Position numbers and translations under genes: made by a program. This document shows, one piece after another, positions 17,096 through 40,379 of a stretch of 64,000 nucleotides of DNA (the stretch's first letter is position 1; the number at the start of each line of letters is the position of its first letter). Below the pieces are notes generated by a model. That model had not been told where the DNA came from. It searched no databases and saw nothing but the letters and a program-made list of their open reading frames with translations. Source of the DNA: an uncultured Flavobacteriaceae bacterium (GTDB lineage Bacteria; Bacteroidota; Bacteroidia; Flavobacteriales; Flavobacteriaceae); the NCBI GenBank assembly GCA_947494695.1, contig CANLWB010000008.1, forward strand, positions 248,001 to 312,000, given 5' to 3'.

Positions 17096-17422
17096 CACTA
17101 ATGTATTTGTTACTTGCTGTAAGCCGGCGGTCAAGCCCAGTAGATTCGCTTCCTTATTATACTTAGCCCAATATTTACTTTTTTGAGGCTCGACTTTCTT
17201 AAAGACATGGGTTATGCCCTTATGAGACTTATCGAAAGCATGTTATTTCAAGAATAGTGATAGTATATAAAATGGCGAAGTAAAATAAGACATATTGAAA
17301 TCCTTTAAAAATGGGTTCTGGATACTTGTCTTGCCGACAAGGCAGGTATCGAGGACTAATGTCCTCAAAGTCTACCGACTTTGAGGAACGAGAAGGAATG
17401 ACAAATTTTACTCAAAAACGTT
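17096..17422. other. Gap between GH16 and the CIS operon
   Basis: There is no credible coding region. The right half carries two hairpins: CTTGTC-5-GACAAG (17325-17341) and TCCTCAAAGT-6-ACTTTGAGGA (17362-17387). The second resembles a repeat found upstream of the CIS operon (40354-40379). Confidence 0.6.
17325..17387. repeat. Composite hairpin repeat at the 3' end of the CIS operon
   Basis: Two stem-loops lie in tandem. The second has perfect 10-bp arms and a six-base loop (17362-17371 / 17378-17387). Fourteen consecutive bases (AATGTCCTCAAAGT, 17358-17371) recur at 40350-40363 in the same orientation. It may double as a terminator for the CIS or GH16 transcript, or be a dispersed intergenic element. 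Confidence 0.6.
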
Positions 17423-17812
17423 CTAACCATCATTGGTTTGTTCCTGTCCGGGTGAAGTAATAGAAATCTCGCCCTCCCACATACATTCGCAAGTGCTACT
17501 AGCATCTATTACCGTAATGTTATTTATCGACACATCTTCAATTTCAGATTCCCAAGGTGTTGTGGTTGCGGGAACACAGGGCATAGGGGTTAAAACACCC
17601 TGAGCTGCTGTTGTCGCTGTTTCTACCTCTGGATTTGTAAGTGAAGAACACATACCAAAAGACATGATATTTTCTAAAGGCACATAATCCATAATCGTGG
17701 CGGCCGGCATATCGCTTGTATTCACTTTATTGGTTGGTAATATGGTTAATTCTGATGGCGCGTCTCCAAATGTACATGAAAGCACGGCTCCACTGCATAC
17801 TTGTAATCCCAT
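17423..17812 (-). CDS. PAAR-like (DUF4280) spike-tip protein of the CIS
   Basis: A 129-residue protein of the DUF4280/PAAR-like family. It opens MGLQVCSGAVLSCTFG, continues with a PSELTILPTNKV strand, has PCVPATTTPW in the middle and ends with an SSTCECMWEGEISITSPGQ block; the cysteines at both ends fit the small metal-binding cone that caps VgrG-type spikes. It corresponds to the Afp10 position of antifeeding-prophage-like systems. It is the last gene of the CIS operon, six bases after the ATPase. No C-terminal toxin extension is present. Confidence 0.85.
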   Translation of the reverse strand: MGLQVCSGAVLSCTFGDAPSELTILPTNKVNTSDMPAATIMDYVPLENIMSFGMCSSLTNPEVETATTAAQGVLTPMPCVPATTTPWESEIEDVSINNITVIDASSTCECMWEGEISITSPGQEQTNDG

Positions 17813-17818
17813 AATATT

Positions 17819-19159
17819 TTAATTTAATGTTTTATTTGATTTATGATATTCTCGCTTAATTCCGGTAATAATATCGTTTACACTAGTTCTTTTTTCTCCT
17901 TCATTTGCAGCTTTCACTGCACAATACCGGAGTACATTAATCATTTCCCCTCCAGACAACTCATAATCTCTGGCTATTTGATCCAGGGCTTCTGCACCTT
18001 CTTTGACTTCGAAAACCTCGCCTATCATTTTTTTCCATAGCAGTTTGCGTTCTCTATATTTTGGTTTTGGAAAATCGATGGTATTTTGAAAACGCCTTAA
18101 AAAAGCATCGTCTATATTGGTTTGTAAATTGGTAGCCAAAATCACCAGTCCGTCAAAATCTTCAATCCGTTGTAGTAAATAGGCAACTTCCTGATTAGCA
18201 TGACGGTCGTTAGATGAGTTTGTTTGAGTTCGCTTACTAAACAAGGCATCGGCTTCGTCAAAAAATAAAATCCATGACTTTGATGTCGCTTCGTCAAATA
18301 ACCTGCCCAGATTTTTTTCTGTCTCTCCAATATATTTTGAGACCACCATAGAGAGGTCTATTCTAAAAACAGGTTTATTCGTGGCTTTCCCAAGTAATGT
18401 TGCGGCCAAGGTTTTCCCAGTTCCGGGAGCGCCATAGAACAACACCTTATATCCAGGTTTTAAGGTTTTATCCATTTGCCATGTGTGCAAAATAAGATTG
18501 CTATGCTTAAGCCAGGATTGAACTTCATTGAGTTGATTCTTTATCTGATCTTCCAAAATAAGATCGTCCCATGATAATTTGGTTGTAATTTCCTTGGCTG
18601 GGAACTTAGAATTATAAGCCGGCAAATAAGGTTCATCACTAATAATGCTACTTAAATATTCTTCGGATAATCTGAGTTTTTCATGAAGTCCAACAGGGTA
18701 ATTATCAGAATATAAAATGCCTTCTTTGTAAAGGATATGATGTTTACGCATGGCCTTTATAAAAGCGAGGCGTTTTTGTATATCTTTCGCGCCTCCCAAT
18801 ATAAAACAGGCGGTTTCTAAAGTTGGGACAAACCCATACTGTTTTTCGGTTTTAACACCTCCAAATTCTGAGAACTCGCAATCTAAATTCTTGTTTTTAA
18901 TTAAAAACACATCTAAACATTGCGGTTTAACTAAGGGTGCCAGAGCAAGAGCCAGCAGTATGCGTTCTTCGAATTCGAAATTATATTTGTTAAGTAATTT
19001 TGCATAGCCCGAATCTTCATGTCTTAATACCGGTGGTTCTAATGCTCTTACATCACTATAATTGCACTCATTTTCAAAATACAAGATTAAGGCCGTATCT
19101 ATAACCGCTTCCAACCATGCTATTTCTTGTTGTAACAGCATAACGTCTTGTTGTTCCAT
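17819..19159 (-). CDS. AAA+ ATPase of the CIS (Afp15-like)
   Basis: A 446-residue ATPase. Walker A is GAPGTGKT (243-250), Walker B is ILFFDEAD (297-303), and RRFQNTIDFPKP carries the arginine region. The N-terminal half is the variable domain found in CIS-associated ATPases. I chose the ATG at 19159 because it overlaps the stop of the tape measure-type gene as TAATG; in-frame ATGs at 19171 and 19198 would give longer overlaps. In eCIS this ATPase is needed for particle assembly but is not part of the mature particle. Confidence 0.9.
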   Translation of the reverse strand: MEQQDVMLLQQEIAWLEAVIDTALILYFENECNYSDVRALEPPVLRHEDSGYAKLLNKYNFEFEERILLALALAPLVKPQCLDVFLIKNKNLDCEFSEFGGVKTEKQYGFVPTLETACFILGGAKDIQKRLAFIKAMRKHHILYKEGILYSDNYPVGLHEKLRLSEEYLSSIISDEPYLPAYNSKFPAKEITTKLSWDDLILEDQIKNQLNEVQSWLKHSNLILHTWQMDKTLKPGYKVLFYGAPGTGKTLAATLLGKATNKPVFRIDLSMVVSKYIGETEKNLGRLFDEATSKSWILFFDEADALFSKRTQTNSSNDRHANQEVAYLLQRIEDFDGLVILATNLQTNIDDAFLRRFQNTIDFPKPKYRERKLLWKKMIGEVFEVKEGAEALDQIARDYELSGGEMINVLRYCAVKAANEGEKRTSVNDIITGIKREYHKSNKTLN

Positions 19160-22100
19160 TAATTTCTCCATATCACATGAATTAACTTTTTCATCCAACT
19201 TAATTTTAATGTTCCAATACCCCAGGGGATGTGATCCAATAGCATATCAAAGGTCTTTTCTTCGACACTCAATGTGTAACTATCTTCTTCTATATTAAGA
19301 CTTCCGTCTCGGCAAAGGAATGTCTCTCGCAATCCTTCAACCGAAGTGTTCCCAATAGTACTCCATTGTGCAATTACAGCTTTTAGAAGACTCTCCACCA
19401 GCTCCTTTTCTTCAGGGGTTATTGCTATATGTTTTTCAATGGTGTCCTGAATGGACATGCCACAAATAATTTTGTTGAGCGCCAGATTTTGCTCCTCTGC
19501 TCCTTCCTTCCCAGTTACTGCATATTGCAACACGTGCACCGCTTTTTGAGCGCTACTATCATCTTTAAATTTCCCATCTTCTAATACCCCCAATCGCTCG
19601 AATAGCATAGGAATGAAAGGGCTTAAAATCACCATTCCGGCATTAGAAACATAAATAGATTCTCCTATAACTTCTTCTTTTTCTTCTATAACAGCAGCAT
19701 CATTTTTAATGTGCTCCTCATCATTGTTCATAAGATGCTCTACGTCCTGAATTATTTCTGTTGTGTCGTTCGAAATATTTAATGTATCTGCACGAAACGC
19801 ACCCGAAACTATGGTCTCGGGGAATTGTGATATGCTTTTATAAAGTATAACACTCCAATCTTTGGTGATCCACTGCTTTGGTTTATCCATAGCTATTTTA
19901 AGCAATGTAAACTCAACAACATGTTTCCAAACGATTTGGTACTGAGATCCTGAAAATTGTTTACGTAATTTTTCAAGTAAAATTAGAATATTGGAAAAGC
20001 GCGATTGTTCGGCTTCTGATAAAAAACATCTGATAAATTCAATATGTTCCTTATGATCCAACCTTTCTATAATTTGTTTTCTAAATGATGTTCGTTTTAA
20101 ATAAAAGTATAATGCTTTTGGAGTTTTTACCGAAATAGCCTTAAGAACGGGTAAAACTTCTTTTTTGGAAGTATCATTGAAGACCTGCTCCCAATCTTTT
20201 TTATAGCTCGTAAGCTGTTCTAATTTTTTTAACGTTTTAGCAGCGTTTAAATTTGATTTTAGAGCATTACTTAACCACTGTGATACATCTTTTGCCAAGC
20301 GTGATTTTGCATCAACATCGTTAAGTTTTTCCCATATTAAAACCTTAATATCTAAAGCGTCCAATCGATATGTTTTTGCCATGTATTCTATTAAATGGCT
20401 TGTTAATGCTACCGCACTTATCCCTTGGTCTTTATGTATCTCGTTAAGTATTACACATCGAATGTCATACTTCTGTTGTGAAGACACGCTACGAATTCCC
20501 GAAATGCTCTTCTCGATTAAGTCATCGATTATTGTTTTAATGGTAATTATTGAGGTGCTTAGCGTCGGACACATCTGTTTAATAAGGATTTCATAAGCGG
20601 GGTCCTCTATAAATCGAATAAGCTTTCCCTGACCTTTTGCTTCAAGAAACCAGGTTTTAAAATGATCTGGAAAGGCAGCAATTACTTCAGCAAAATAGTC
20701 CCGAAGTTCTTTTATAGATTCACCGTGATTCCACCACGGTAATTTACCATGAATGCACACGTACTGCACAACGTCTCGTTTGTAGGTTCTGCTCTTTTTA
20801 TTAGCAACTGTTGCGTTTTTATAAAATTCCTGATCTTTAAGAATGCCTTTTAAAATATTGTAATCTTCCCCATATGGAATTTGATCTTGTAACTGTGACA
20901 ACACTAACTTCCTTGACATACCGTGCTTCTTGGAAAACACTTCTATTAATTGCGAAACACTTTGGGTCAAGCGACTTCCCGTTCGTTTATGGAACTGTTC
21001 GTATATACGTTCTATAAGGGCATATAATATGGAATTTGAAATACTTTTATCCGGTTTATTTTTGACTTCTGAAAGATGGTATGTTTTTTTCACACCTTCT
21101 TTGATACCCTCTTTAATAACACCATCAACACCCAACTTGTCCATGATGTGCTCCAACTGAGACATTATTAAATCTACAGGTTCTGCTTTATCAGAAAGTT
21201 CCTTTTTTCGTTCTTCTACCCATTGAACAATGTCCCGCTTCGTATACCCCTTCGTTGAAGTACAAACATTTAATAACAACAGCACCATCTGTAACGATAC
21301 TTCTTTTATATCTATGCTTTGAAGGAATTGTTGAAATTCTAATAGGGTAATGGTATGACCTTTATGATGTTCTAAATAAATCTTCTTTGATAATTTAAAA
21401 ATAGACGGCTCTATATGTAGCGATTTTGGCCTTAAATACTCGCCGGTATAAACCATACTCATTTCTCTAATATAAGCCCTTAACGTTTCCTGATTGTTTA
21501 AGCTTATTTTGTGCTCAAACATGTCTAACACTTTAACAAAGGCTTTATCTATTTCTGTATGCTCTATAATAGCATTTAAAAACGCTATAAGATTATTAAC
21601 AGGGGTATTCGATCGCATAAGATATGCTCTTAGGCATATTTCACCCAGTCGTTTTTCAGCGGTTTGCAAAGTCGAAGAGATTATATTCTCCCGATTTGCC
21701 AATGCCCCTATTTGTTTAAGAAAAAGCGCAAACGCTCTTAGAGTTTTATTGGGAGATTTAACCACAATATGATTAAGCACGCTATCTGGAAACCTATCAA
21801 CCCAAAGACCAACATGCTCTACATCAGAAATATGCGCATCAAAAAAAACATAAAATGCTGTTGAATTCTGCATAATATGAGCTTCAATATTTTCATAAAA
21901 CACTTTGTATGACCCCCATTTGTTATTCGCTGGCAAGGAATTATACGTTAAATAGTGTTTTAGAAGTTCAATAAACTTTAAAGGATTATTCTCTTCAAAT
22001 TCAAAATCGGAAACTGCCTTTACATACGCTTCTTCCTCCTCCTCCTGCAACATGATTAGCAACTTCTCGAAATCAATAATTCGAGATTCTTTATTTTGGC

Positions 22101-22908
22101 GACTTTTAACTCCCAAAACCATCATATGCAATAAACTTTTGTATGTTAACCTATATTTCTGAGCTATTTTACGAATCAGGTATTGCAGAAAGTTCTTTTG
22201 GTTAGAATAACTTCTTACTTCAATGAATATATAGGCTAGAGTGATTTCCCAAATGGCATTTCTAAAACTCCCAGAGCCAACTTCTATTAACTTGTACGCC
22301 TTCTGCTGATCTACAATATGTTTGCGATATTGATTAATGTGAGTCGCCTCATTCTCTACCGTTGCAACGACTATATGTTCTAAAAACTCGTCATCCAACT
22401 GGGTGATTAAACGCTTACGAATCGTTTCTTTTCGCCCTAGGTCCTTTAACAGGTCGACTAATCCCTTTTTGTTTTTTTGAAGTAACGCTTTAAATAGTTC
22501 AATAGGTTTATCAGACATCGAAGTATTCCATTCTACATATCCGTTTTTAAGAAAAAATTCAAACTGCTCAATGCGCTTATCGTAAAGTTTTTTACGTTTT
22601 CCCACTTTTAAGGCACCACCCTCATAACTACTGCTTCTAAAAAAATTAGTTAATGCTTCTTCAACCCTATATTCCAATTCTCTTTCAAAACCAGTACTAG
22701 AAACACTTCCCAGATCTAACACAACCTCATCAAACTGATCTAAATATTCGATGTTATCGAATCGATCCATCACGTTTTGTAAAACATGTTGAATCCTGTG
22801 TTCCTGGAGCCTGCTCACTTTAGATTGGTAGGCATATGCTTCCTCTTTATGGTCTAACGTAATTTCGTAACGTTGACTTTTAATAATATGTGTTTGTGCA
22901 TGTTTCAC
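19159..22908 (-). CDS. CIS tape measure-type protein (Afp14 position)
   Basis: A 1,249-residue, mostly helical protein starting with GTG at 22908, overlapping the previous stop as GTGA. The N terminus (THIIKSQRYEITLDHKEEAY, then FDEVVLDLGSV) is that of the Bacteroidota 'contractile injection system tape measure' family; the C terminus has an AGMVILSPFIPMLFERLGVL block also typical of it. Repeated helical units fill the middle. By position between baseplate and ATPase it matches Afp14, expected to set sheath length from inside the tube. The family is confident from its termini; the length-setting role is by analogy. Confidence 0.85.
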   Translation of the reverse strand: MKHAQTHIIKSQRYEITLDHKEEAYAYQSKVSRLQEHRIQHVLQNVMDRFDNIEYLDQFDEVVLDLGSVSSTGFERELEYRVEEALTNFFRSSSYEGGALKVGKRKKLYDKRIEQFEFFLKNGYVEWNTSMSDKPIELFKALLQKNKKGLVDLLKDLGRKETIRKRLITQLDDEFLEHIVVATVENEATHINQYRKHIVDQQKAYKLIEVGSGSFRNAIWEITLAYIFIEVRSYSNQKNFLQYLIRKIAQKYRLTYKSLLHMMVLGVKSRQNKESRIIDFEKLLIMLQEEEEEAYVKAVSDFEFEENNPLKFIELLKHYLTYNSLPANNKWGSYKVFYENIEAHIMQNSTAFYVFFDAHISDVEHVGLWVDRFPDSVLNHIVVKSPNKTLRAFALFLKQIGALANRENIISSTLQTAEKRLGEICLRAYLMRSNTPVNNLIAFLNAIIEHTEIDKAFVKVLDMFEHKISLNNQETLRAYIREMSMVYTGEYLRPKSLHIEPSIFKLSKKIYLEHHKGHTITLLEFQQFLQSIDIKEVSLQMVLLLLNVCTSTKGYTKRDIVQWVEERKKELSDKAEPVDLIMSQLEHIMDKLGVDGVIKEGIKEGVKKTYHLSEVKNKPDKSISNSILYALIERIYEQFHKRTGSRLTQSVSQLIEVFSKKHGMSRKLVLSQLQDQIPYGEDYNILKGILKDQEFYKNATVANKKSRTYKRDVVQYVCIHGKLPWWNHGESIKELRDYFAEVIAAFPDHFKTWFLEAKGQGKLIRFIEDPAYEILIKQMCPTLSTSIITIKTIIDDLIEKSISGIRSVSSQQKYDIRCVILNEIHKDQGISAVALTSHLIEYMAKTYRLDALDIKVLIWEKLNDVDAKSRLAKDVSQWLSNALKSNLNAAKTLKKLEQLTSYKKDWEQVFNDTSKKEVLPVLKAISVKTPKALYFYLKRTSFRKQIIERLDHKEHIEFIRCFLSEAEQSRFSNILILLEKLRKQFSGSQYQIVWKHVVEFTLLKIAMDKPKQWITKDWSVILYKSISQFPETIVSGAFRADTLNISNDTTEIIQDVEHLMNNDEEHIKNDAAVIEEKEEVIGESIYVSNAGMVILSPFIPMLFERLGVLEDGKFKDDSSAQKAVHVLQYAVTGKEGAEEQNLALNKIICGMSIQDTIEKHIAITPEEKELVESLLKAVIAQWSTIGNTSVEGLRETFLCRDGSLNIEEDSYTLSVEEKTFDMLLDHIPWGIGTLKLSWMKKLIHVIWRN

Positions 22909-25775
22909 ACGTTGTCTTGTTGCTCGATTAATCGTTGTAGTATCACGACGAGTTCGTATGCAAGATCCATAAGCTTTTCGTCCTCGCCATCAACCGGTAA
23001 TTGCTCCAACCATTTAAAATAATGTATTTCGAACGTCTTAAGGTTTTCATAGTTCAACCAATGAATATCGTATTTAATATGAATGGGGAATTGTTCGTAT
23101 ATCGTGTTTTCGAACATTCTTCTAAAGTTTTCACTTTGAAAACGAACGGGCCAGGAAGGTGCGATAAATGTTGATTGAAACGAAAAGAAATCCTCATTGA
23201 TTATTGGTTTTCCGTTTCCGTAATTTACATGACAGCAAACAATAGATTCCAGCTCTTCGATGTCCACCTTAGCACCTATTCCCTTTAAAATTTCTATTTC
23301 TTTTTTAAGTGCGTCCTCAGACTGGTATTGATTTTCAGAAACCAGCAGTACGTTCTTTTCGGTCATCGTTTCTACCATCAGACTAATCTCTAAGCTATAT
23401 CCTGTATTTTTATGGATAATCGCATATTCCAAGGTACCGAGAGACAACTGATCTATAAAACCGATAATGATATCGTTTCGTTCCTGACAAGACATCCAGT
23501 GGTTATGCTTAAGTTTTAGGTTTGATTCTAATACCGGAAGTCTTGAGAGGTCTATTTGAAACCCATAGTGAGCTGCTTTATACGGTGGTAATAGTAACAA
23601 GTGTTCCACCATGAAAAAGCCTTCACTTTCTTGATTTAATGTCACCAGTGTTTCTACAGCTTTTTGAATTTCCTTAGATGCGCCATGGCGACTTTTTGCA
23701 AGAAAGGCTATATTATATTCCTGACTCGAATTCTTATAAAGTACGTAGTATTGATATTTCTCTGTTCCTTTTTTAATTTCATAATTACTGGCAATGACTC
23801 CATTTTTTAGTACGTCTTTGAAGACCGTCTCCCGATCTCCCATATAATGCATCGCACTACTAAGGTCTTTTTCCAGTGTTTCATCAACAATCACTTCCTC
23901 AATCTCTATGGTTTCGATGTTCTCCTCGGGAATATAAATAGCTTTAATGTTAACCTGCACTTCCAGGGTTATGGGGCTAATTTTTATTTCGGAATCCTCA
24001 ACCCCCTGTACCAGTGATTTGATTTTATAATCGTGAATATCCATTAAGATAGCCAGTTTGCGCAGTATCCCTGGAATAAGCTGAATATCCTGTCCGACCT
24101 CTGACTCATTATAATTGAACGACCTTGCCCGTCCATAGCTAATAGATCCGTATTCCCGAACCAATTCGCGTTTCGATGCCAATAACTTTTTCTCAAAATC
24201 TTCATTCACCAATATGGCACCGTAACTATTACTGTTTATTTTTCGAAGCGCATATGTTTGGAAGGTTTCATTAAACCTGGCCAACAAATGATTCGCAATA
24301 TGATCATATCGTACCAGGGCCTCATTATCGAAGGTATTATTTATGGTATCTAATACTTGTTTCCATATCTCCAAATCAAAATCTTTTTCTGCCGGTTTTA
24401 TTAAATCCTGCAGTTCTTCTACATCGGGTAACACTTTTGTAAAGTAGGACACTTGATTGTTATCTTTCACATCATACAGCGTATAAATATTATTTAGCTG
24501 GGTTAGAAAGTTTAGCATAACCTGATCGAAAGGCATTAAATAGGCCTGCAACTGCTTTACCTGTGCTCGGCGTAATTCTGTAGCCTCACTACCCAGCCCT
24601 CGATCTCCTATGCCATAGAGTTCTGGAAGTTGCTTTCTTACTGGAAAGTAAGAGACCATATCGAGATAAACGCCTTCTGGAATGGTTATCTTATTTAAAG
24701 CATCGGAAGCCTCTTTAAATCCACCATAGTTTAAAGCTCTTATAAATGCCAATTGTTTCTTGGTTTCCTTGAGATCGGGTTGAAATAGCGTATTGGAATT
24801 TTGAAAAATAATGTGTCTGTTCGATTTGGGAAATGAGACCATCACGTTCGTATTTTTAGGCACCTTAAAACGGTCGCGAATCTCGACTGTTTTTTCAGAA
24901 TCAGACGTTTTATATTGCAAAAAGAAATCATTAACACTTACTATGCCTGCTATTTGAGTAATGATTTTTAGGATATCTGAAATTACAATTTCCTCCAATG
25001 GATTCTTAAGATCTTCATCTAAAATAAACCCCTGAAACAGCTTTGGCCCATTAAAAATGGTATTAACTGGTATATTTTTTTGTTGAAGCTCCCATAAGGA
25101 ATAGTACTTCACATCGGGAGCAAGATAATCGTTTACCTTATTAAAAATTCGTGCTAAAACTTCCTCACCATTCACACTACTAGAAAGTGTAATATTTAAA
25201 CTCATGGTAAGTCGTAGTGGCTTGTAAATTTCCACATCGTAAATATCTTCACATAAATTTCTATTGGAATTATAGATCTCTTTTAATTCTTTGATAATTC
25301 TTTCATTATCATTCGCATCTTCGTCGGCATCTGTTTTATACTGATACTTTTCAACAAACACATGTAGTAACCCCTTAATATTGCTAACATCTCTGGAATA
25401 ATTATCTACTGGATAAACCCATACATTTTTAACATTTACGATTTGATCGATCCATATTTTTCTATAATCGGAAAAGGAAACAGGGCATGTTGTTAAAATA
25501 TCTGAGGCAATAAAAAAGCCATTATCTCCCGATTGTAATGTTTCTCCCTTAGATTTAATTAAGATATCCTCAATAGGCGCCTGTGTCTTATGTGCCAATT
25601 CTGTAATGGCATATACTAAGCTTTCTAAAATGGTTACTCCAGGGTCATGTTCGTTGTAATCGGTCCAGATACCGCTGCTCAACTTTTGGACAATCTCCAA
25701 AGCCTCCAGGTGCAGTGTTTCGTAAAGTCCACTGCCTTCCTTTTTTTTATTAATATACCCTTTTATGTTGTTCAT
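22905..25775 (-). CDS. CIS baseplate component (Afp12-like)
   Basis: A 956-residue protein. Residues 28-60 contain the baseplate-J-like opening (LSSGIWTDYNEHDPGVTILESL), the counterpart of the phage gp6/J signature in which an 'HDPGvTllE' stretch precedes a helix. The remainder is large and beta-rich with little low complexity. It lies 12 bases after the fibre gene and overlaps the tape measure gene by four bases. It should form, with the 1,219-residue partner, the wedges around the spike hub. Confidence 0.85.
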   Translation of the reverse strand: MNNIKGYINKKKEGSGLYETLHLEALEIVQKLSSGIWTDYNEHDPGVTILESLVYAITELAHKTQAPIEDILIKSKGETLQSGDNGFFIASDILTTCPVSFSDYRKIWIDQIVNVKNVWVYPVDNYSRDVSNIKGLLHVFVEKYQYKTDADEDANDNERIIKELKEIYNSNRNLCEDIYDVEIYKPLRLTMSLNITLSSSVNGEEVLARIFNKVNDYLAPDVKYYSLWELQQKNIPVNTIFNGPKLFQGFILDEDLKNPLEEIVISDILKIITQIAGIVSVNDFFLQYKTSDSEKTVEIRDRFKVPKNTNVMVSFPKSNRHIIFQNSNTLFQPDLKETKKQLAFIRALNYGGFKEASDALNKITIPEGVYLDMVSYFPVRKQLPELYGIGDRGLGSEATELRRAQVKQLQAYLMPFDQVMLNFLTQLNNIYTLYDVKDNNQVSYFTKVLPDVEELQDLIKPAEKDFDLEIWKQVLDTINNTFDNEALVRYDHIANHLLARFNETFQTYALRKINSNSYGAILVNEDFEKKLLASKRELVREYGSISYGRARSFNYNESEVGQDIQLIPGILRKLAILMDIHDYKIKSLVQGVEDSEIKISPITLEVQVNIKAIYIPEENIETIEIEEVIVDETLEKDLSSAMHYMGDRETVFKDVLKNGVIASNYEIKKGTEKYQYYVLYKNSSQEYNIAFLAKSRHGASKEIQKAVETLVTLNQESEGFFMVEHLLLLPPYKAAHYGFQIDLSRLPVLESNLKLKHNHWMSCQERNDIIIGFIDQLSLGTLEYAIIHKNTGYSLEISLMVETMTEKNVLLVSENQYQSEDALKKEIEILKGIGAKVDIEELESIVCCHVNYGNGKPIINEDFFSFQSTFIAPSWPVRFQSENFRRMFENTIYEQFPIHIKYDIHWLNYENLKTFEIHYFKWLEQLPVDGEDEKLMDLAYELVVILQRLIEQQDNV

Positions 25776-32511: not shown

Positions 32512-33189
32512 TTATTTTAAGGGAGGTAAATAGATTTTTGTTCCGGGTTTAATTTCTCTAAAATTTAATATGTTATTAAACGTTGCTACTTCCATATAAT
32601 AGCTACTATCTCCATAAATTCTGTAGCAAATGAGCGGCAAGGTATCGCCTTCTTTTATTTCGACCAGATGCGTGAGATCGGGAGATTGATTATTGGCTTC
32701 TTTGGCAATAAGCCCCTCATCTATAGCTTCTTCAAACGATGCCGTGACTTTGGCTCGCAGCGGTGTACCGTCATTTTTAAAAAGCGTATACGATATATTT
32801 AAAGAGGTTAGTTTACATTTAAAGACCAGGGTTCCCCAAGAGATTATTAAGTAATTAGATTCATGGATGCTCCCGTTATAGGTAAAACAAACGTCCTTAA
32901 ATGTTTTTATTTGATCCTGCACTGTGGCCTGCTTGGCAAACGTAGCTAGACCTCCGGATTTAACGGCTCCGGTGGCATCGAAATAGATATCAAAAGACAC
33001 TTTTTCGGGAGGAATACCTTTAAACCACAGCGTTGTTCCTGGTGATCCCAGTGCCTGTTGATTGTTGTAATTTACCGTGTGTTCGTGTGTATACGATTCG
33101 GGATTTATTTGTACGGTACATGTCGCGGTTCCGGCACCTGAATATTCATTACTATCATAAGCGATTATTTCCATTAAATCCTTACCCAT
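32512..33189 (-). CDS. LysM-domain baseplate protein (Afp7-like)
   Basis: A 225-residue protein with a gpU/gp53-like N-terminal part and a C-terminal LysM-type domain (VEIKEGDTLPLICYRIYGDS through PGTKIYLPPLK, about 174-224). In Afp-type particles this subunit links the tube initiator to the hub. Its start is one base after the stop of the 52-residue gene. Confidence 0.88.
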   Translation of the reverse strand: MGKDLMEIIAYDSNEYSGAGTATCTVQINPESYTHEHTVNYNNQQALGSPGTTLWFKGIPPEKVSFDIYFDATGAVKSGGLATFAKQATVQDQIKTFKDVCFTYNGSIHESNYLIISWGTLVFKCKLTSLNISYTLFKNDGTPLRAKVTASFEEAIDEGLIAKEANNQSPDLTHLVEIKEGDTLPLICYRIYGDSSYYMEVATFNNILNFREIKPGTKIYLPPLK

Positions 33190-33190
33190 A

Positions 33191-33349
33191 CTATCGCTCT
33201 TTTAGTTTATCTAGTTGTTTTTTCACTTCTTTTCGACAAGTAGATTCAATAGTCTTCTTAATCATATTAATATCAATGGTCTCAGATTGCTTATTAATCG
33301 ATTCTTCTACTTTTACTTTTATAACTAACTCTCTTATTTCTATTGGCAT
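33191..33349 (-). CDS. Small CIS protein, DUF5908-like (Afp6 position)
   Basis: A 52-residue protein starting with ATG at 33349 and ending in TAG at 33191. It begins MPIEIRELVIKVKVEE and ends in a Lys-rich helix (KEVKKQLDKLKER). The MPIEI-REL-I-K opening matches DUF5908, a small family in Bacteroidota CIS loci. One-base gaps on both sides show that it belongs to the operon. Its role is unknown; small proteins in this position may adapt the tube or baseplate. Confidence 0.75.
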   Translation of the reverse strand: MPIEIRELVIKVKVEESINKQSETIDINMIKKTIESTCRKEVKKQLDKLKER

Positions 33350-33350: not shown

Positions 33351-33797
33351 TTATATTACTATAGAATAATCATAGGATAATTCTAATGTTTCAATAAGAA
33401 TTTCATTATTCATTGAGTTTAGTGGTGAGAATTCCCATTTTACAGGCCATGCATTTATAAAACTCCAATTTTTAATTGGGAGTCCATTTTCATTGAGCAG
33501 ACTCAATAAAACAGTCTGGGTTATTAGTGTTGAGGATAAACCGCCACCCAAAGTAGTTTCACACCATAAAGATAGTGGTGAAACCAGCGACGTAATGCCC
33601 CGTTTAAGTACAAGGTTCTGATATTTTGCTCCAGTAGGAACCCGGTGTTTAAACCGGTTTTCCCCACCTTCTGCAATTTCTTCAGTTCCCATCTCCATAG
33701 TCATGCCTGAAACTTCCTTAAACGAGGTATCTACTACACCTAAGCTCAACGGAAATGTAAGCCTGAAATAAAAACCTACTAATGGATAATCACTCAT
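33351..33797 (-). CDS. Tube-end/tube-initiator protein (Afp5-like)
   Basis: A 148-residue tube-fold protein of the T4 gp19-like family: YFRLTFPLSLG, SFKEVSGMTME, FKHRVPTGAKYQNLVLKRGI and WSFINAWPVKWEFSPLN. It is a paralogue of the 153-residue tube protein next door. Its second-copy position and its closer proximity to the baseplate genes match Afp5, which starts the tube on the spike. Confidence 0.9.
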   Translation of the reverse strand: MSDYPLVGFYFRLTFPLSLGVVDTSFKEVSGMTMEMGTEEIAEGGENRFKHRVPTGAKYQNLVLKRGITSLVSPLSLWCETTLGGGLSSTLITQTVLLSLLNENGLPIKNWSFINAWPVKWEFSPLNSMNNEILIETLELSYDYSIVI

Positions 33798-33800: not shown

Positions 33801-34262
33801 CTATCCATTCGCAATTGTTAGCCCTTCGTGAGCTAATTCTAAGGTTTCTACAGCAACTTCATTACCATCTGATTTTAAATCTGTTCCGGTAATTTTTGTT
33901 GGCCATGCATTTGTTAAGGTCCAAGTCATCGTTGGTGCCCCAGTTTGATCCAGCAACTGAATAACTACTGTTTCTCTTTTAATGGTATTCATTTTAATCG
34001 CGTCATACCACTTCCAAAAGTTATTATCCTTAACAAAAATTCCTTTTTTTAGGGTGACATTGCCAAATTTGGCGATACCGGGCATCTTAATTGTACTAAA
34101 GGTTTTACTGTCTCCATGCCTGTATTCTACCACTTGTGTTTCTGTATCTAAACCAGATACTTCCTGAAAAGAGGCCGTGCTATCCTGAGAACCCAGGTTA
34201 ACTTTAAAATAAAATTTAGTTAACGGCCAAATTGCACCTTGTGCTGATCCATCATCTGCCAT
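33801..34262 (-). CDS. Inner tube protein (Afp1/Hcp-like)
   Basis: A 153-residue gp19-like tube subunit: FYFKVNLGS, ASFQEVSGLDTETQVVEYRH, KFGNVTLKKGIF and WTLTNAWPTKITGTDLKSD. Stacked hexamers form the needle that the sheath drives forward. It is three bases from the tube-end gene and 44 bases after the sheath, a gap that might allow a higher expression level through an internal start. Confidence 0.93.
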   Translation of the reverse strand: MADDGSAQGAIWPLTKFYFKVNLGSQDSTASFQEVSGLDTETQVVEYRHGDSKTFSTIKMPGIAKFGNVTLKKGIFVKDNNFWKWYDAIKMNTIKRETVVIQLLDQTGAPTMTWTLTNAWPTKITGTDLKSDGNEVAVETLELAHEGLTIANG

Positions 34263-34306: not shown

Positions 34307-35965
34307 TTATCCTTTTTGCATTTCCTGCTGGAACGTAATTTCTATGAATTCTGCAGGATGTGATACGGCTACTTTCACCGCAACAATCATACGTCCTTCG
34401 AGAATATCCTCAGAAGTCATTGTACTTCCAAGTCCAACAGTCACAGAAAAGGCATCTACAGGTTTAGAACCAACAAGACCTCCCTGATTCCATAATCCGA
34501 TAAGGAAGTTGCTTATCATACTTTTTACAGAAACCCATGTACTGGCATCATTAGGAGCAAAAACATAAGCCATTGCTGCATCTTTTACAGACTGTTCAAT
34601 GTATATTAATGTTCTTCTAACATTGATATACCTCCAGTCGTTAGAATTTCCATCCAGTGTTCTCGCACCCCAAACTAAAACACCTTTACCAGGGAATGAT
34701 CTAATCGCACAAACAGATTTCCCATCAATAGGTACATTAAGGTCTTCCTGTGCTTGATGATCTATTTTAATCGATGGTGATACGACACTCTGCACACCTA
34801 CATTGGCCGGAGCAACCCATACACCTTCATTATTATCTACAATGGTATAGATTCCTGCCATGGCAGCACTTGGCGGCATTAAATTAAGTTTTCCTAATAC
34901 GTGATTTAATAACAGCTTATAATTGGCACTCAAATTTTTAAGTACCGAATCTGCCTTATCCTGTGTAATCCCATTGGCCGCGGGCTTCGTTGCGAATAAA
35001 GCTGTAATATACGGTGCTATAGGATTAGGTGTACTGGCATTGGTCTTGGGATCTTTAGTCGCTGGAAACTCTGCATTAAGCAAGGCTTGGACCACCGGAT
35101 AACTGGCTGCCGCTATATTGCGATATGAAATATCACCCAATTGATTTACTGTTGTATTTAACCACGGATAATACACTGCTGCATAACTATTAAACTTAGG
35201 TAAGGTTGGCTCTACAGCGTTTCTAAAACCTTCAACACTCGTGGTTCCAACCAGTGGCTCACTATAGCCTCCAGGCACATCCAATAATGCTACTCTGGAC
35301 TGTTGTATTCCACAATGGTTTATCACCTCTCCTTGTAAAGAGTAACATAAAGCATATTTTTTTGCTAAATCGGTTTGTGTCGGATCACAAAGCTCTACGG
35401 CATCGGGTATCACGATCATGGTTGGCTCGGTTTCCTTAACTAACGCGGTAAGTGCATTTTGAAAAGGCTCCGTATCTGTTAACCCTGTAGATGCATAGTC
35501 GTACCCTCCTACTGAAACGATATAGCAGGTACCTCCTCCGTTTTCATAGAAGAAACGTATGGCGCTATGCAATCTATAATTTACCGTGGATGTGTTTAAT
35601 GTGTACCCTGCGGTTCCAATATAAAAATCGGGAGCCGGAGCGGTACCATCTCCATCACCAGCAGCTGCAGGTGCCTTCTTTTTAGCGGCATCTCCCTGAG
35701 CTGGCGGTTTTGTACTGGCTTTTGCAGCAGCCGCGGCCGTCACACTAAACTCAATTTGAGGTGGTATGCTTCCAAAAATGGCATTAAACTCTGCCAACGA
35801 TGTGACCTTTACAGGCTCATTTACCAAATCTTTACCATTGTAACTGGTCTGTCCCGTATACCCTATAAAAGCAGGTATTGCGGTAGGAACAGGAACAACG
35901 GCATTTCCAAATGCATCCAGTTCCTGGATATAAACCCCTGGGGTTTTCATTGCTGTTACTGACAT
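34307..35965 (-). CDS. Contractile sheath protein (Afp2-4-like), single copy
   Basis: A 552-residue phage-type sheath protein. N terminus MKTPGVYIQELDAFGNAVV and PAFIGYTG, middle RLHSAIRFFYENGGGTCYIV, and C-terminal GKGVLVWGARTLDGNSNDWR and RRTLIYIEQSVKDA are the sheath landmarks. Residues 77-112 are an Ala/Lys/Pro/Gly-rich low-complexity insert absent from the conserved core, probably a surface loop. Only one sheath gene is present, whereas Afp-type systems often have two or three. Confidence 0.93.
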   Translation of the reverse strand: MSVTAMKTPGVYIQELDAFGNAVVPVPTAIPAFIGYTGQTSYNGKDLVNEPVKVTSLAEFNAIFGSIPPQIEFSVTAAAAAKASTKPPAQGDAAKKKAPAAAGDGDGTAPAPDFYIGTAGYTLNTSTVNYRLHSAIRFFYENGGGTCYIVSVGGYDYASTGLTDTEPFQNALTALVKETEPTMIVIPDAVELCDPTQTDLAKKYALCYSLQGEVINHCGIQQSRVALLDVPGGYSEPLVGTTSVEGFRNAVEPTLPKFNSYAAVYYPWLNTTVNQLGDISYRNIAAASYPVVQALLNAEFPATKDPKTNASTPNPIAPYITALFATKPAANGITQDKADSVLKNLSANYKLLLNHVLGKLNLMPPSAAMAGIYTIVDNNEGVWVAPANVGVQSVVSPSIKIDHQAQEDLNVPIDGKSVCAIRSFPGKGVLVWGARTLDGNSNDWRYINVRRTLIYIEQSVKDAAMAYVFAPNDASTWVSVKSMISNFLIGLWNQGGLVGSKPVDAFSVTVGLGSTMTSEDILEGRMIVAVKVAVSHPAEFIEITFQQEMQKG

Positions 35966-35984
35966 TCTTTTTAATGTTTAATAG

Positions 35985-36998
35985 TTATACATAAATTATG
36001 GTTTGAGAGTAAAATATATTCTCATTATTTTGTTTTTTGGTGATTATTCTGGATACACCTGGCACTGGCATTTTCATGTCCAATTCTATGATGGTATCCG
36101 AAAAATCATTCTTATAAAGCATCGTTAACAGGGGACTTGCTCTGGCTCTTTGCTGAAGTTTTATGGTTGCTGGAGAGGTAAATAAACGCCCCTCTTGAGT
36201 TCCTAACATTTTCTTTTCGGGGCCGGTATATATGTCATTGTTAAATCCTTCTATACCTATGTCTTCAACCGTTATTTTTTTGTCTTTTGAAATAACAACG
36301 GCGTATTGCCAATACGACGACCTTGCTGTAAAATTGACTTTAAACGATAGCGCAGTATTCGTTTTTAACGCTTCGACAATAGGTGTCATCTGCATATGCA
36401 ATATGCCATAGCAGTTGTCTTCAACACGTTCTGAAGTCCCAAAAAAGGTTTTAGATAAGGTACCGCCTACCCAGAGTTCATAGACTCCTGTACCAAACAC
36501 ATTAATATCGACAGTCATACCAGACTGTTTTTCCTGTGATGACTGATTAAAAATGTCTTGCCCGGCATGGTTCTTTATGACCACAGAAACTGGTGAATCT
36601 GATGACAGTTTTACCTCAAAGACTAAGGGTTGAACTGGTAAATACGTCGTAATTGGTAAATTCTGATCTACTGATACATGTAATGGTGTAGTTAGATAAA
36701 GTATGGTGTCTTCTTCCCTGGGCGTGGGAACATCTGTATAATTATCGAAATAAGAATCGGTATTAATAAGTTGAAAATAGAGATCATCGATGGTCTCAAG
36801 TGCTTCCCATATGTTTGATGATGATGATTCGGTTCCTATGTATCCACGATACTGATTGACCATCGTATTTATCTGGATACTATAGTTCTTCATGATCCGT
36901 TGGGTAGAGGACATTGGAAGCAGTTTAAAAACAGAGCAAACATCGTTTTCAAAATAATCATGCAGCATCTCTAATGTAAACCAATGTTGAAGATTCAT
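35985..36998 (-). CDS. CIS-associated protein of unknown function, 337 residues
   Basis: I do not recognise the family. The N-terminal third is helical (LQHWFTLEMLHDYFEND); from about residue 100 it is beta-rich, with paired strands (PITTYLPVQPLVFEVKLSSD) that read like one or two immunoglobulin-type domains, then SFKVNFTARSSYWQYAVVIS. There is no signal peptide and no membrane segment. It lies between the sheath and the tail terminator with gaps of 19 and 3 bases, so it belongs to the CIS. A structural cap or sheath accessory protein, or loaded cargo, are both possible. Confidence 0.7.
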   Translation of the reverse strand: MNLQHWFTLEMLHDYFENDVCSVFKLLPMSSTQRIMKNYSIQINTMVNQYRGYIGTESSSSNIWEALETIDDLYFQLINTDSYFDNYTDVPTPREEDTILYLTTPLHVSVDQNLPITTYLPVQPLVFEVKLSSDSPVSVVIKNHAGQDIFNQSSQEKQSGMTVDINVFGTGVYELWVGGTLSKTFFGTSERVEDNCYGILHMQMTPIVEALKTNTALSFKVNFTARSSYWQYAVVISKDKKITVEDIGIEGFNNDIYTGPEKKMLGTQEGRLFTSPATIKLQQRARASPLLTMLYKNDFSDTIIELDMKMPVPGVSRIITKKQNNENIFYSQTIIYV

Positions 36999-37001
36999 AT
37001 A

Positions 37002-37580
37002 TTATCTTTTTTTAGTATCTGCACCTAATCCACTTACAGCTGGTACCTCTTCTTTAATTTCTCCTTTTTGTATTCCAACCATTCTCACTTTATACACCAT
37101 AGATGGCACGTATTTAGCTCCTATCCCGCTCCATACATGACTTAATTCCTGAATGGGAACATTGTAAATTTCAAACGTTAATCGATCAATTAATGGATCT
37201 AAATCCGGATAATCGGATGATGAAAAAACTCTGGAAGCCTGAAAAAAACTAATAACTGCAGAAAGCATTTTTAAAGCCTCCAAATAGTTATCCGAATTGT
37301 AATTTGCCGAAATAAGCAGATATATATTAAGATGTACCGGAGGATTTACCTTATTGAACCCACCTTGATTATCGGGAATATAACCTCCCATATGCTTAAC
37401 AGTTCGCTCATGTTCTAAATTGATTATTGAAATAATAACCTTATTCTCAATATTATCTGTAACACTACCATCGAGATTTATAAGGCTACCAGGAGCCACA
37501 ATATCGTTTGTTAGTCCGAAGGACATTTTTAAATTCCTGTTAAGAATATCGGTTATAAACGTGAGTACTTTATCTAACAT
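37002..37580 (-). CDS. Tail terminator-like protein, DUF4255/Pvc16 N-terminal (Afp16-like)
   Basis: A 192-residue protein of the DUF4255 family: helix MLDKVLTFITDILNRNL, IISIINLEHERTVKHM, PPVHLNIYLLISANYNSDNY and TFEIYNVPIQELSHVWSGIG. In eCIS the Pvc16/Afp16 homologue caps the distal end of tube and sheath and ends assembly. Its position near the start of the operon and its length fit. Confidence 0.88.
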   Translation of the reverse strand: MLDKVLTFITDILNRNLKMSFGLTNDIVAPGSLINLDGSVTDNIENKVIISIINLEHERTVKHMGGYIPDNQGGFNKVNPPVHLNIYLLISANYNSDNYLEALKMLSAVISFFQASRVFSSSDYPDLDPLIDRLTFEIYNVPIQELSHVWSGIGAKYVPSMVYKVRMVGIQKGEIKEEVPAVSGLGADTKKR

Positions 37581-37584
37581 GAAC

Positions 37585-37908
37585 CTATTGTGTTTTACTT
37601 TCTAATTGCGTTTTTATAGCCGTAGCAACGATTCTTGAAAAATAGATTCCTAAGACGCTAATGATATACAGCACCACAAATGGCGGATACCGATTTCCTG
37701 TGATAATATCGAATACCTCGGTTAAATCAATAGCCGAAATATCTATTAAATATGCAAGAATGAATGTGACCGGAACCGCCAGTAAAGCGACAAACAGCGA
37801 CCATAATAATTCCTTGGACAGCGCCTTTTTTACAGCTGCTAGAATCTTTTTTAGTTTTCCTGCATCTGCTTTTAGTTTTTTGGTATCTCCGGTTGAAACA
37901 ACACTCAT
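37585..37908 (-). CDS. Two-helix membrane protein, holin-like in layout
   Basis: A 107-residue protein with a Lys-rich cytoplasmic N terminus (KKLKADAGKLKKIL), two membrane helices (LLWSLFVALLAVPVTFILAY and PFVVLYIISVLGIYFSRIVA) and a short polar tail. Its ATG overlaps the stop of the GH18-like gene by four bases, so the two are translated together. Small size, two helices and a charged N terminus resemble holins and also membrane anchors. It could place the CIS or its wall enzyme at the inner membrane. The family is not recognised. Confidence 0.7.
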   Translation of the reverse strand: MSVVSTGDTKKLKADAGKLKKILAAVKKALSKELLWSLFVALLAVPVTFILAYLIDISAIDLTEVFDIITGNRYPPFVVLYIISVLGIYFSRIVATAIKTQLESKTQ

Positions 37909-39692
37909 GGCAATTCTTTTTTACGGCGTTCAACATACATATTTGCAAGGTAGTAGGTTACTCCTCCCAGTATAAAACCAATAATGAGTATAACAATATT
38001 ATCGTCTATCCAATGTTGCATTCTAAAAATGACAATAAGCAATAGCAGCACAAAGGCAGAGTAGTATCTCTTTAAAGAGGCATTGTTAAAAAAACCAGCT
38101 CTGGTATTGGGAGATGTCATGGCAATCACGAATCCTATGCAAGCAAAGAACAGTGCAAACCACATGAGGTATAAAAGGATGGTTTTGTAATCGGTAATGC
38201 TCGCTAATTTTGTTTCGACCTGATTCACCTTGCTGTTCGGATCATTAAGCCCAAGTTTTTCTGAAATATTCTGCAAAATACCGGAACTTGAACCACTATC
38301 TTGACCATTTGAAGCACTCCCTCCCTGAGCGGTTCCATCTCCATTGGCATTACCTGACCCTCCATTTGACGAAGCGTCTGCTTCTACTTTCTTTTCTTGT
38401 GATAATTCGGTATATATCACATTCCAGATATCATTGTACCCTTTATCGTAACCCAGGGCCCAAAGCCCCAAACCAGCAAGTTTATTTTTTTTGATAAGGT
38501 TTGTCTTGTATACAAAACTCGAATCATTTTCAAACCAACACTGTCTATATTGCGTTTTACTTCCAGAAGTTCTATAGGCACTATAAGCACTTTTACTTAT
38601 AGGATCTATATACACGGCCTCATTTTTTTCGATTTCAGATTTTATATAGCTATAGGTTCTGCTTCCCAAAAACTTTTTCGCCTTAGATTGCAAACTTTGG
38701 CTCTCTGTTTCCCATAAGTTTCCATATGTTGGTAATGCCAGAATAAGTTGAGAATTCGTCACACCTTCATCTAAATAGTACTTTACAGATTCTGTAAGGT
38801 TAAATGGCTCCCAGTCTTTCCCACTAAGCAAAGGTGCTACCGGTCCTGCAATACTACTTGTTTTACCATAATAATCATACCCCATTATGACGAACCTATC
38901 TATAGCCTGATCTAAGGACTTAAAATCCAAAGCATAACTCAGGTTCACGCTGGGTACCGTGATATATATTTTATAATCCTTGTTTGCCTTTTTTAGTCGG
39001 CTAGATAGTGTTAATAAGAATCCCGTATAGTTATCTTTTTGGCTTTTTGGAACGCCCTCAAAATCTATGCAAACCCCATCTGCATTTCTTTTGGTTAAAA
39101 GCTCAATAAGATTATCTATAAGTTTATCAATGGACTTAGAGTTTTTTAAAAATCGCCTATTGTTTCTTTGTCCAAAATTGGTAACAGTAAGGAGTATTTT
39201 TTTGTTAGGATAGGCTCTAATGGAATCTATTAATGGTGTTGTTTCCCAATCATGTGTTGAGATAGCCTCACCATTAGCCGGGTTTACCTCATACGAAAAA
39301 TAGGCCACCGTAGAGAGCAGTGAAAAATTGAGGCTTTTGTAATAGTCATTCTCCCAATATGGATACCAACCAAACACTTCATACCCTAATTCAAAACCTG
39401 TCTCCGCTTTAAAAGCAACACTTTTAATATCAACATCTTCAGCAGCCGATGCAAATGTAGGAGTCTTATTATCTTTTAAGGTTTTATGATGTTGATGAAT
39501 AAACTTTTTAGCAAGTTTTGAAGAATCGTTATGTTTAAATAACTTTTTAAAAAAGCCAAGTTTTTTAGTTTCTTTTTTGAGCTCTGATGGGTCTTGCTGA
39601 AACGTATATGCATTCTCCAAGGACAACGCATAAAGGTTGCCTTGAAGCAAAATCAAACCAGCAAGTAATATCAATAATCTTAAGTAACTCAT
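37905..39692 (-). CDS. Membrane-anchored GH18-like protein heading the CIS operon
   Basis: A 595-residue protein. Residues 1-22 are a signal peptide or signal anchor; about 100-430 form a GH18/spore-germination-YaaH-type barrel (VFGWYPYWEN, KKILLTVTNFG, RFVIMGYDYYG, LALPTYGNLWE) with the catalytic pattern DGVCIDFE at 205-212 (Glu212). A Ser/Gly/Asn-rich linker (438-471) leads to three membrane helices at about 504-525, 544-558 and 565-586. The enzyme domain would lie in the periplasm and act on peptidoglycan- or chitin-like beta-1,4-GlcNAc polymers. It is the first gene of the operon and overlaps the two-helix gene. Wall passage, anchoring or release of the CIS are inferred roles. Confidence 0.85.
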   Translation of the reverse strand: MSYLRLLILLAGLILLQGNLYALSLENAYTFQQDPSELKKETKKLGFFKKLFKHNDSSKLAKKFIHQHHKTLKDNKTPTFASAAEDVDIKSVAFKAETGFELGYEVFGWYPYWENDYYKSLNFSLLSTVAYFSYEVNPANGEAISTHDWETTPLIDSIRAYPNKKILLTVTNFGQRNNRRFLKNSKSIDKLIDNLIELLTKRNADGVCIDFEGVPKSQKDNYTGFLLTLSSRLKKANKDYKIYITVPSVNLSYALDFKSLDQAIDRFVIMGYDYYGKTSSIAGPVAPLLSGKDWEPFNLTESVKYYLDEGVTNSQLILALPTYGNLWETESQSLQSKAKKFLGSRTYSYIKSEIEKNEAVYIDPISKSAYSAYRTSGSKTQYRQCWFENDSSFVYKTNLIKKNKLAGLGLWALGYDKGYNDIWNVIYTELSQEKKVEADASSNGGSGNANGDGTAQGGSASNGQDSGSSSGILQNISEKLGLNDPNSKVNQVETKLASITDYKTILLYLMWFALFFACIGFVIAMTSPNTRAGFFNNASLKRYYSAFVLLLLIVIFRMQHWIDDNIVILIIGFILGGVTYYLANMYVERRKKELP

Positions 39693-40137
39693 TAATGTTT
39701 AATGCTTTGGCCAAAGTTAACAGCGGCGTAATTCTTGAGGTCTGACTATGAAACATTGTAGACATTGGAATTGCTAGATTTAAGGAACTTTAAAAAGTTG
39801 TCATACAATTCACATAAACCTTACTACGTGTAAAACACACCAACATCTGCTGATTTTAGCTAAAGCAATCTAAAGAAAAAATTCAAAAACTACCTGCAAT
39901 AAAAGCATACTAAGTGTATGATTTACACGTACTAAAAATATATTTTTCGCTTACTTTTAGTAAGCAATAAGATCACAAAAAGTAACGAAATAACCTTTAT
40001 GCTATCTTTAATGTCGGTTAAAAACTATTTAAAAATTAAACGTGGCTTTTTGGTTGGGTAAAAATATGTTATCATAAGAATCCTTTCGTATGGTAAACCA
40101 AAATCGGCAGAAATTTTATATGTCTTTTAAATTTCTC

Positions 40138-40161
40138 TGGCTAAGTCTCCAGACTTAGCCA
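40138..40161. repeat. Near-perfect 24-bp palindrome
   Basis: TGGCTAAGTCT and AGACTTAGCCA form 11-bp perfect arms with only two bases between, upstream of the CIS operon and downstream of the response-regulator gene. It is either a strong terminator-like hairpin or cruciform, or a dispersed intergenic repeat. Confidence 0.6.
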
Positions 40162-40353
40162 AACATTAACCAACTAAACGTATAAATTTGAAAAGCAGAT
40201 TACACTATACGAGATCAAGAAAAAACACAGGTCATTATTGCAACAGCAATAGAGTGGATAGATGTCTTTACACGAAAGTCTTAAAAGATATTGTTAATTA
40301 GTTGTTGGGGTTCCGCATGGCGAAAAAAGTGTGGCTCTTTTTAGACAATAATG

Positions 40354-40379
40354 TCCTCAAAGTTGTGAGACTTTGTGGA
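40354..40379. repeat. Second copy of the CIS-flanking 10-6-10 hairpin
   Basis: TCCTCAAAGT (40354-40363) and ACTTTGTGGA (40370-40379), one mismatch, six-base loop. It shares 14 consecutive bases with the copy at 17358-17387 and the same architecture and orientation. The two copies flank the CIS operon. Confidence 0.55.

What the first reader, a model, noticed from the sequence alone, without database searches (positions are those of the whole stretch)
17358..40379. A complete CIS operon lies within a red-algal galactan locus, bracketed by matching hairpins
The 17-gene CIS operon (17423-39692) separates GH16/P450 genes from beta-helix, sulfatase and GH2 genes. Beyond its ends lie two 10-6-10 hairpins in the same orientation that share AATGTCCTCAAAGT (17358-17371, 40350-40363). 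This could mark an insertion or a rearrangement boundary, joining a weapon or signalling device to a polysaccharide-use region. The hairpins and gene order are seen directly; insertion is inferred.
Basis: partly seen in the sequence, partly recalled or inferred. Interest (0 to 1): 0.75.

Follow-up and report, generated by a model that had tools for sequence, protein, structure and literature searches.

The report
Injection-system operon inserted in galactan locus
In this marine Flavivirga-type bacterium a whole phage-tail-like injection-machine operon sits inside a red-algal-sugar gene cluster that lacks it in related species, but the matching hairpins beside it are scattered repeats of a transposase-linked family rather than marks of the insertion, and nothing found here ties the machine to the sugar genes.

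Summary
A 17-gene contractile injection system (CIS) operon (17423-39692) lies inside a porphyran/agar-type locus, and the 14-mer is at both places, with only two exact copies in 5.49 Mb. Insertion is supported: in four genus-mates lacking this CIS the flanking genes are syntenic and the slot behind GH16 holds 1.4, 3.0, 3.0 or 7.5 kb instead of 28.6 kb. The hairpins do not mark it. The right one is one end of a truncated REP/RAYT element (inverted palindromes at 40140 and 40348, 38 transposase codons between) and lies inside the CIS-plus-regulator block that Flavivirga aquimarina keeps elsewhere. The left one is a solitary hairpin of the same family, which has at least 17 places in the genome; two neighbours within 23 kb are then likely by chance (0.70). 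A weapon-galactan link is not supported: of 12 genomes one has both this CIS and the GH16, three only the CIS, four only the GH16. Most interesting by-product: a membrane-anchored GH18 and a coupled small membrane protein head this operon in 24 of 30 named loci, and the eCIS-core cargo genes lie elsewhere.

The parts
16214..17095 (+). GH16 (porphyranase-like), last left-hand gene of the galactan locus; DNA homology to 4 genus-mates ends at 17089/17090
17310..17410 (.). double hairpin in the spacer between convergent GH16 and CIS; its second hairpin (17359-17393, minus strand) is a solitary REP-family palindrome
17423..17812 (-). DUF4280, PAAR-like tip
17819..19198 (-). AAA ATPase
19159..22908 (-). 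CIS_TMP tape-measure domain protein
22905..25775 (-). baseplate protein, Alg12/All3315-like
25788..26543 (-). 251-aa possibly fibre-like protein; N-terminus weakly like All3316 of the Anabaena CIS
26564..30223 (-). baseplate J-like protein (Cis11)
30249..30734 (-). gp25-like baseplate wedge
30740..32503 (-). Phage_base_V spike
32512..33189 (-). CIS_tube protein
33191..33349 (-). small conserved CIS gene
   Evidence: sequence; homologues (queried there as 33182-33349)
33351..33797 (-). inner tube (gp19)
33801..34262 (-). inner tube (gp19)
34307..35965 (-). sheath
35985..36998 (-). 337-aa CIS protein of unknown role
37002..37580 (-). Pvc16_N terminator/cap
37585..37908 (-). 107-aa membrane protein with two hydrophobic helices, 4-nt overlap with the GH18 gene
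37905..39692 (-). GH18 protein: N-terminal hydrophobic segment (probable signal peptide), GH18 domain, three C-terminal hydrophobic helices; first gene of the operon
40138..40160 (-). left, inverted REP hairpin of the truncated RAYT element
40192..40305 (+). remnant of a REP-associated tyrosine transposase gene (residues 2-39, 63% identity)
40527..41216 (-). response regulator that accompanies the CIS in F. aquimarina (71% identity)
41450..43450 (-). beta-helix protein, shared with the slot of G004; DNA homology starts at 41457
44024..45562 (-). S41 peptidase, shared with the slot of G011 and G006

Best explanation
A CIS operon with its neighbouring response regulator (about 17.1-41.4 kb) was relocated into an indel-prone slot of a porphyran/agar-type locus in this Flavivirga lineage. 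The flanking hairpins are REP-family palindromes: on the right the two inverted ends of a deletion-truncated RAYT element in the spacer upstream of the CIS, on the left a solitary copy between convergent genes. They moved as REP elements do and did not carry or delimit the CIS. The CIS itself most likely works like AlgoCIS: particles assemble in the cytoplasm and are loaded with eCIS-core cargo made from unlinked genes. Shown: the gene content, the broken synteny, the REP/RAYT homology, the unlinked cargo genes. Inferred: direction of the event (insertion rather than loss in other lineages), how the REP copies moved, particle assembly, loading and release.
For: Left (373-17095) and right (44024-63264) parts are syntenic in G011, G002 and G006, and in the stretch fetched of G004, with slots of 3.0, 1.4, 3.0 and 7.5 kb. 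F. aquimarina (G005, named through) has 17 of 17 CIS genes in the same order and the regulator beside them, but no GH16 homologue at E up to 1e-30. Window 40140-40306 is 85% identical to L168:281-447 and 40348-40382 is 89% identical to L168:965-999; between these L168 holds an intact RAYT (NF047646 101.5 bits, cut-off 80). A REP model finds 26 matches at E up to 0.05 in 17 places, five of them as inverted pairs 95-260 bp apart; one pair, C2:2323-2618, also holds a RAYT remnant. eCIS_core genes: 7 of 7 genus genomes with a sheath match, 0 of 5 without, 0 of 14 control genomes; three in this genome, none in the window.
Against: The regulator as part of the block rests on one other genome; G001, G007 and G082 have the CIS without it. 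This genome is on a long basal branch of a weakly supported rpoB tree, so loss of an ancestral CIS-in-locus arrangement in the others cannot be excluded. Two REP places in one 64 kb window is mildly unusual (0.017), and G007 has an intact RAYT 1.8 kb upstream of its CIS, so a REP/RAYT role in the rearrangement is not ruled out. No vehicle was found: no tRNA in the window, no integrase or transposase among the 44 window ORFs scanned with Pfam (RAYT remnant apart), and no shared word longer than 7 nt between the two homology edges, which every one of 200 shuffles reaches.
Confidence: 0.77

Rival explanations
1. The hairpins are the ends of a mobile unit that carried the CIS into the galactan locus.
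For: Only two exact copies of the 14-mer in the genome, one on each side of the CIS; a 15-nt match is reached in 7 of 5000 shuffles.
Against: The right hairpin lies between CIS and regulator, inside the block; it pairs with the hairpin at 40140 around a RAYT remnant; the family has at least 17 places, with which a neighbouring pair within 23 kb has chance 0.70; the family orientation of the two is opposite; the 60 kb fetched around F. aquimarina's copy hold no REP match at E up to 1.
Confidence: 0.05
2. CIS and galactan genes are functionally joined: the CIS is induced on, or aimed at, red algae or competitors on them.
For: Physical nesting only; two AraC-type regulators lie in the locus.
Against: Of 12 genus genomes 1 has this CIS and the GH16, 3 only this CIS, 4 only the GH16, 4 neither; the 16-21 kb flanks of the CIS in 4 close relatives hold no galactan-locus homologue; in 30 named sheath loci the only hit to a locus gene is a 30% sulfatase match (these loci reach beyond the operon on the upstream side only).
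Confidence: 0.08
3. The CIS was ancestrally in this slot and was lost from it in other lineages.
For: This genome is basal in the midpoint-rooted rpoB tree, and its slot holds both the beta-helix and the S41 gene that others keep singly or not at all.
Against: The CIS lies elsewhere in G005, G001, G007 and G082; several losses would be needed. The 399-401-aa gene directly behind GH16 in G011, G002 and G006 is missing here.
Confidence: 0.17

Closest known systems
AlgoCIS (Algoriphagus machipongonensis, PMC8894135 and PMC13314943, passages seen)
   Same: Sheath (7adz, 1.2e-90), tube, Alg11/Alg12-like baseplate proteins; DUF4157 cargo
   Different: PMC8894135 places its two DUF4157 cargo genes inside the cluster, and the word search of both main texts found no 'hydrolase' or 'chitinase'; here cargo is unlinked and a GH18/membrane pair heads the operon
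Anabaena CIS (7b5h; thylakoid CIS from recall and PMC12210884) and the 9r9h/9rce CIS (one chain named SalCis12)
   Same: 9r9h is the best sheath and tube hit (1.8e-127, 8.8e-63); All3316 resembles the N-terminus of the 251-aa protein (E 0.0038)
   Different: Different hosts; the 9r9h system could not be found in the paper library
REP/RAYT elements and REPINs (PMC2817692, PMC3116915: search listing with the start of the abstract only)
   Same: Inverted palindromes around a Y1 transposase gene; derivatives keeping little more than the ends
   Different: At least 17 places found here, against the usual more than 100 copies per genome that PMC2817692 states
Streptomyces CisA (PMC12237407, passages seen)
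   Same: Membrane protein with an extracytoplasmic domain encoded in a CIS cluster
   Different: CisA has a domain like solute-binding proteins and one helix; here GH18 with three helices plus a two-helix partner

Membership tests
extracellular-type CIS (eCIS) | sheath, tube, spike, baseplate, AAA ATPase and Pvc16 genes in one operon | tested here: met
extracellular-type CIS (eCIS) | DUF4157/eCIS_core cargo in the genome | tested here: met
   three genes, unlinked to the operon
extracellular-type CIS (eCIS) | tail fibre | tested here: inconclusive
   251-aa protein; modest model (mean pLDDT 71, pTM 0.49), best hits fibre ends at E 8e-6 but TM 0.16
extracellular-type CIS (eCIS) | release of free particles | not testable with these tools
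   needs microscopy
REP/RAYT element (40138-40382) | pair of inverted REP hairpins | tested here: met
   the left one scores weakly in the model (E 0.12) but lies in the stretch 85% identical to L168, whose own left REP scores 48.5 bits
REP/RAYT element (40138-40382) | intact Y1 transposase gene | tested here: not met
   only residues 2-39 remain; intact in relative L168. Filed as a remnant only
REP/RAYT element (40138-40382) | high copy number (more than 100) | tested here: inconclusive
   17 places, but only 150 of 2207 first-look candidates were scored, so a lower bound
mobile unit bounded by the two hairpins | hairpins at both homology edges | tested here: not met
porphyran/agar utilisation locus | GH16 porphyranase-type enzyme, P450 system, GH2, sulfatase | tested here: met
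   no SusC/SusD family among the Pfam hits listed for the window; substrate not tested

The most novel reading that the evidence does not exclude
A broad Bacteroidota CIS clade carries its own wall-opening module: a membrane-anchored GH18 related in fold to the SleL cortex enzymes, with the catalytic Glu and its neighbouring Asp kept, translationally coupled to a two-helix membrane protein, heading the operon. It would thin the producer's peptidoglycan either to release particles (lysis cassette) or to let an inner-membrane-docked CIS fire through (a CisA-like anchor with muralytic activity).
Probability: 0.3. Interest if true: 0.6.

Novelty: new member of a known kind. Interest (0 to 1): 0.38.

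Why it matters
It shows that a striking gene neighbourhood (weapon inside a feeding locus, framed by matching hairpins) can arise from three separate and ordinary things: a variable slot, a relocated CIS and a dispersed REP/RAYT family. It also points to an untested question: how such Bacteroidota CIS particles pass their own cell wall, with a conserved candidate gene pair at the head of the operon, and how unlinked cargo genes serve one machine.

Tried and rejected
Rfam scan of the window: no match. Terminator scan: none in 16800-17700; in 39600-41500 one site, at 40645-40663 inside the regulator gene and not at the hairpin, so a terminator role of hairpin 1 got no support. A remnant of the F. 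aquimarina 262-aa gene in the 39693-40526 spacer: only a weak hit on the wrong strand (E 0.034). Shared words at the two homology edges: nothing beyond shuffles. PADLOC: no hit for five proteins. F. aquimarina's CIS flanks searched in this genome fall on different contigs, mainly C6, C9 and C2, so no empty site for that copy was shown; only 40 of 141 and 40 of 193 first-look candidates were scored. Paper searches: CIS with polysaccharide utilization loci gave one paper (listing only), CIS with GH18 two Pseudoalteromonas papers (listing only), CIS with chitinase and operon four (passages of PMC8213781 mention a Dickeya toxin tentatively predicted to be a chitinase), SalCIS and CIS with Salinibacter none. 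That the GH18/membrane pair was not found described rests on these searches and on passages of five further CIS papers. The first count in my notebook (25 of 30) was wrong; one search gives 24 of 30.
Full report
What is there. The window is G000:C8:248001-312000 of a 5.49 Mb genome in 77 contigs. Its genus contains Flavivirga aquimarina (G005) and F. amylovorans (G007), by matching contig lengths; the species of the window itself was not named. On the minus strand 17423-39692 holds 17 genes with the structural set of a CIS. The best solved relatives of the sheath are 9r9h, AlgoCIS (7adz) and the Anabaena CIS (7b5h). The left and right neighbours form a porphyran/agar-type locus: GH2, P450 with ferredoxin and reductase, GH16, sulfatase, alpha-L-fucosidase and sugar-acid enzymes.

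Is it an insertion? Window proteins were compared with stretches of nine other genomes. G011, G002, G006 and G004 have the GH16 (82-84% identity) but no close relative of this CIS: G011 and G006 have no sheath match at E up to 1e-20, G002 and G004 one of another type (55-56% over the C-terminal part). In them the genes left and right of the CIS are neighbours. The GH16-to-45714 slot measures 3.0, 1.4, 3.0 and 7.5 kb there and 28.6 kb here. Its content varies: a 399-401-aa gene with (G011, G006) or without (G002) an S41 peptidase, or two small genes, a beta-helix protein and a 1014-aa protein (G004; a 68-aa ORF there was not counted). The slot is therefore variable in its own right. The CIS, 17 of 17 genes in order, lies elsewhere in G005, G001, G007 and G082; in G005 alone the response regulator accompanies it (71% identity). 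None of the four has a galactan-locus homologue at E up to 1e-10 within the fetched 16-21 kb on each side. DNA homology to the locus ends at 17089/17090 in four of four genomes and resumes at 41457 (G004); homology to F. aquimarina's CIS and regulator reaches from 17431 to 41209. CIS proteins of this genome and F. aquimarina differ by 3-45% and rpoB DNA by 12%, so neither part looks newly acquired. The rpoB tree leaves the root weak; loss in the others is less likely but not excluded. No vehicle was seen at the edges.

What the hairpins are. A pattern with the hairpin core gives 0 to 6 matches per genome and occurs in 6 of 12 genus genomes. Comparing the spacers with the 171 loci then held showed that window 40140-40306 is 85% identical to L168:281-447 (G005:C103), and 40348-40382 is 89% identical to L168:965-999. 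Between these ends L168 encodes a 199-aa protein that passes the NCBIfam cut-off for REP-associated tyrosine transposases (101.5 against 80 bits) and Pfam Y1_Tnp (28.5 against 23). The window keeps residues 2-39 (63% identity, E 4e-10) and lacks about 0.5 kb. The second hairpin is thus the right end of a truncated RAYT element; the hairpin at 40138 is its left end, inverted. Hairpin 1 resembles three relatives' REP hairpins at 92% over 25 nt on its minus strand (E 0.003) and less well on the plus strand; in the model it scores 38.9 bits on the minus and 30.2 on the plus strand, but the model was built with it on the minus strand. That model, from 14 hairpins which include the two of the window and were collected by likeness to them, gives 28 matches at E up to 1, of which 26 at E up to 0.05 fall in 17 places. 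Only 150 of 2207 first-look candidates were scored, so this is a lower bound. Five places are inverted pairs, and C2:2323-2618 also holds a RAYT remnant. With 17 random places the chance that some neighbours lie within 23 kb is 0.70, and more places would raise it; the chance of two or more in a given 64 kb is 0.017. So the pair is mildly unusual for one window but ordinary for a genome. In F. aquimarina the matching spacer holds a 262-aa gene with an eCIS-cargo-like leader instead (no Pfam domain), and no REP match at E up to 1 was found in the 60 kb fetched.

Against this reading. F. amylovorans has an intact RAYT (67.6% identical to that of L168) at 380172-380774, 1.8 kb before its CIS operon, with weak REP-like matches at 379415, 379816 and 382132 (E 0.016 to 0.21); G001 has one at 3660892, about 0.4 kb before its CIS (E 0.0067). 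A recurrent REP/RAYT presence upstream of this CIS is possible and was not tested further. Family Y1_Tnp has 1 to 11 matches in each of the 12 genus genomes, 3 in this one.

How the CIS probably works. The sheath is the only one in this genome at E up to 1e-20. eCIS_core genes occur in the 7 genus genomes with a sheath match and in none of the 5 without; here there are three, on C3, C11 and C19, each with only that Pfam domain at E up to 0.01. Two of three show the leader motif that I scanned for (a motif of my own choosing, from the F. aquimarina genes). I infer cargo loading as in AlgoCIS (PMC8894135, passages). The operon begins with a GH18 protein: a probable signal peptide and three C-terminal helices by hydropathy, and a GH18 domain with Asp210 and Glu212 invariant and Cys208 where the usual motif has Asp (23 sequences; the two shortest of 24 relatives were left out there; motif from recall). 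PDB sequence hits include chitinases, YdhD and YaaH. It is followed, with a 4-nt overlap, by a 107-aa protein with two hydrophobic helices. The pair is present in 24 of 30 named sheath loci and overlaps in 18 of those 24. The GH18 model (mean pLDDT 71) matches chitinase-like folds and the SleL cortex enzymes alike, so the fold alone does not decide the substrate.

Link to the galactan locus. In 12 genus genomes: this CIS and the GH16 1, only this CIS 3 (G001, G005, G007), only the GH16 4, neither 4. No positive association is seen; numbers are small, and the locus was scored by its GH16 alone.

Verdict.

Noticed in passing
window 37585-39692; L120-L140, L142, L145, L147: GH18 with three membrane helices plus a coupled two-helix protein head the CIS operon in 24 of 30 named loci; no description found in the searches made.
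   Followed up: partly
G000:C3:162239, C11:187813, C19:39209: Three eCIS_core cargo genes unlinked to the single CIS; in the genus such genes are in 7 of 7 genomes with a sheath match and 0 of 5 without.
   Followed up: partly
G007:C9:380172-380774 and 382132; G001:C1:3660892: Intact RAYT and weak REP-like hairpins just upstream of the same CIS in two relatives.
   Followed up: partly
window 17095-45714 and the same slot in G002, G004, G006, G011: The slot behind the GH16 gene differs in content and length between genomes; only G011 and G006 are alike.
   Followed up: yes
window 25788-26543: 251-aa protein well conserved (69-82% in the 13 closest of 23 relatives); its model weakly resembles Bdellovibrio fibre ends and T4 gp9.
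   Followed up: partly
G000:C2:2323-2618: A second inverted REP pair with a RAYT remnant, like that of the window.
   Followed up: partly
G008:C28:62000-122000 and 454590: A more distant CIS (sheath 46-52% identical) with a different gene order, and a second sheath match on the same contig.
   Followed up: no
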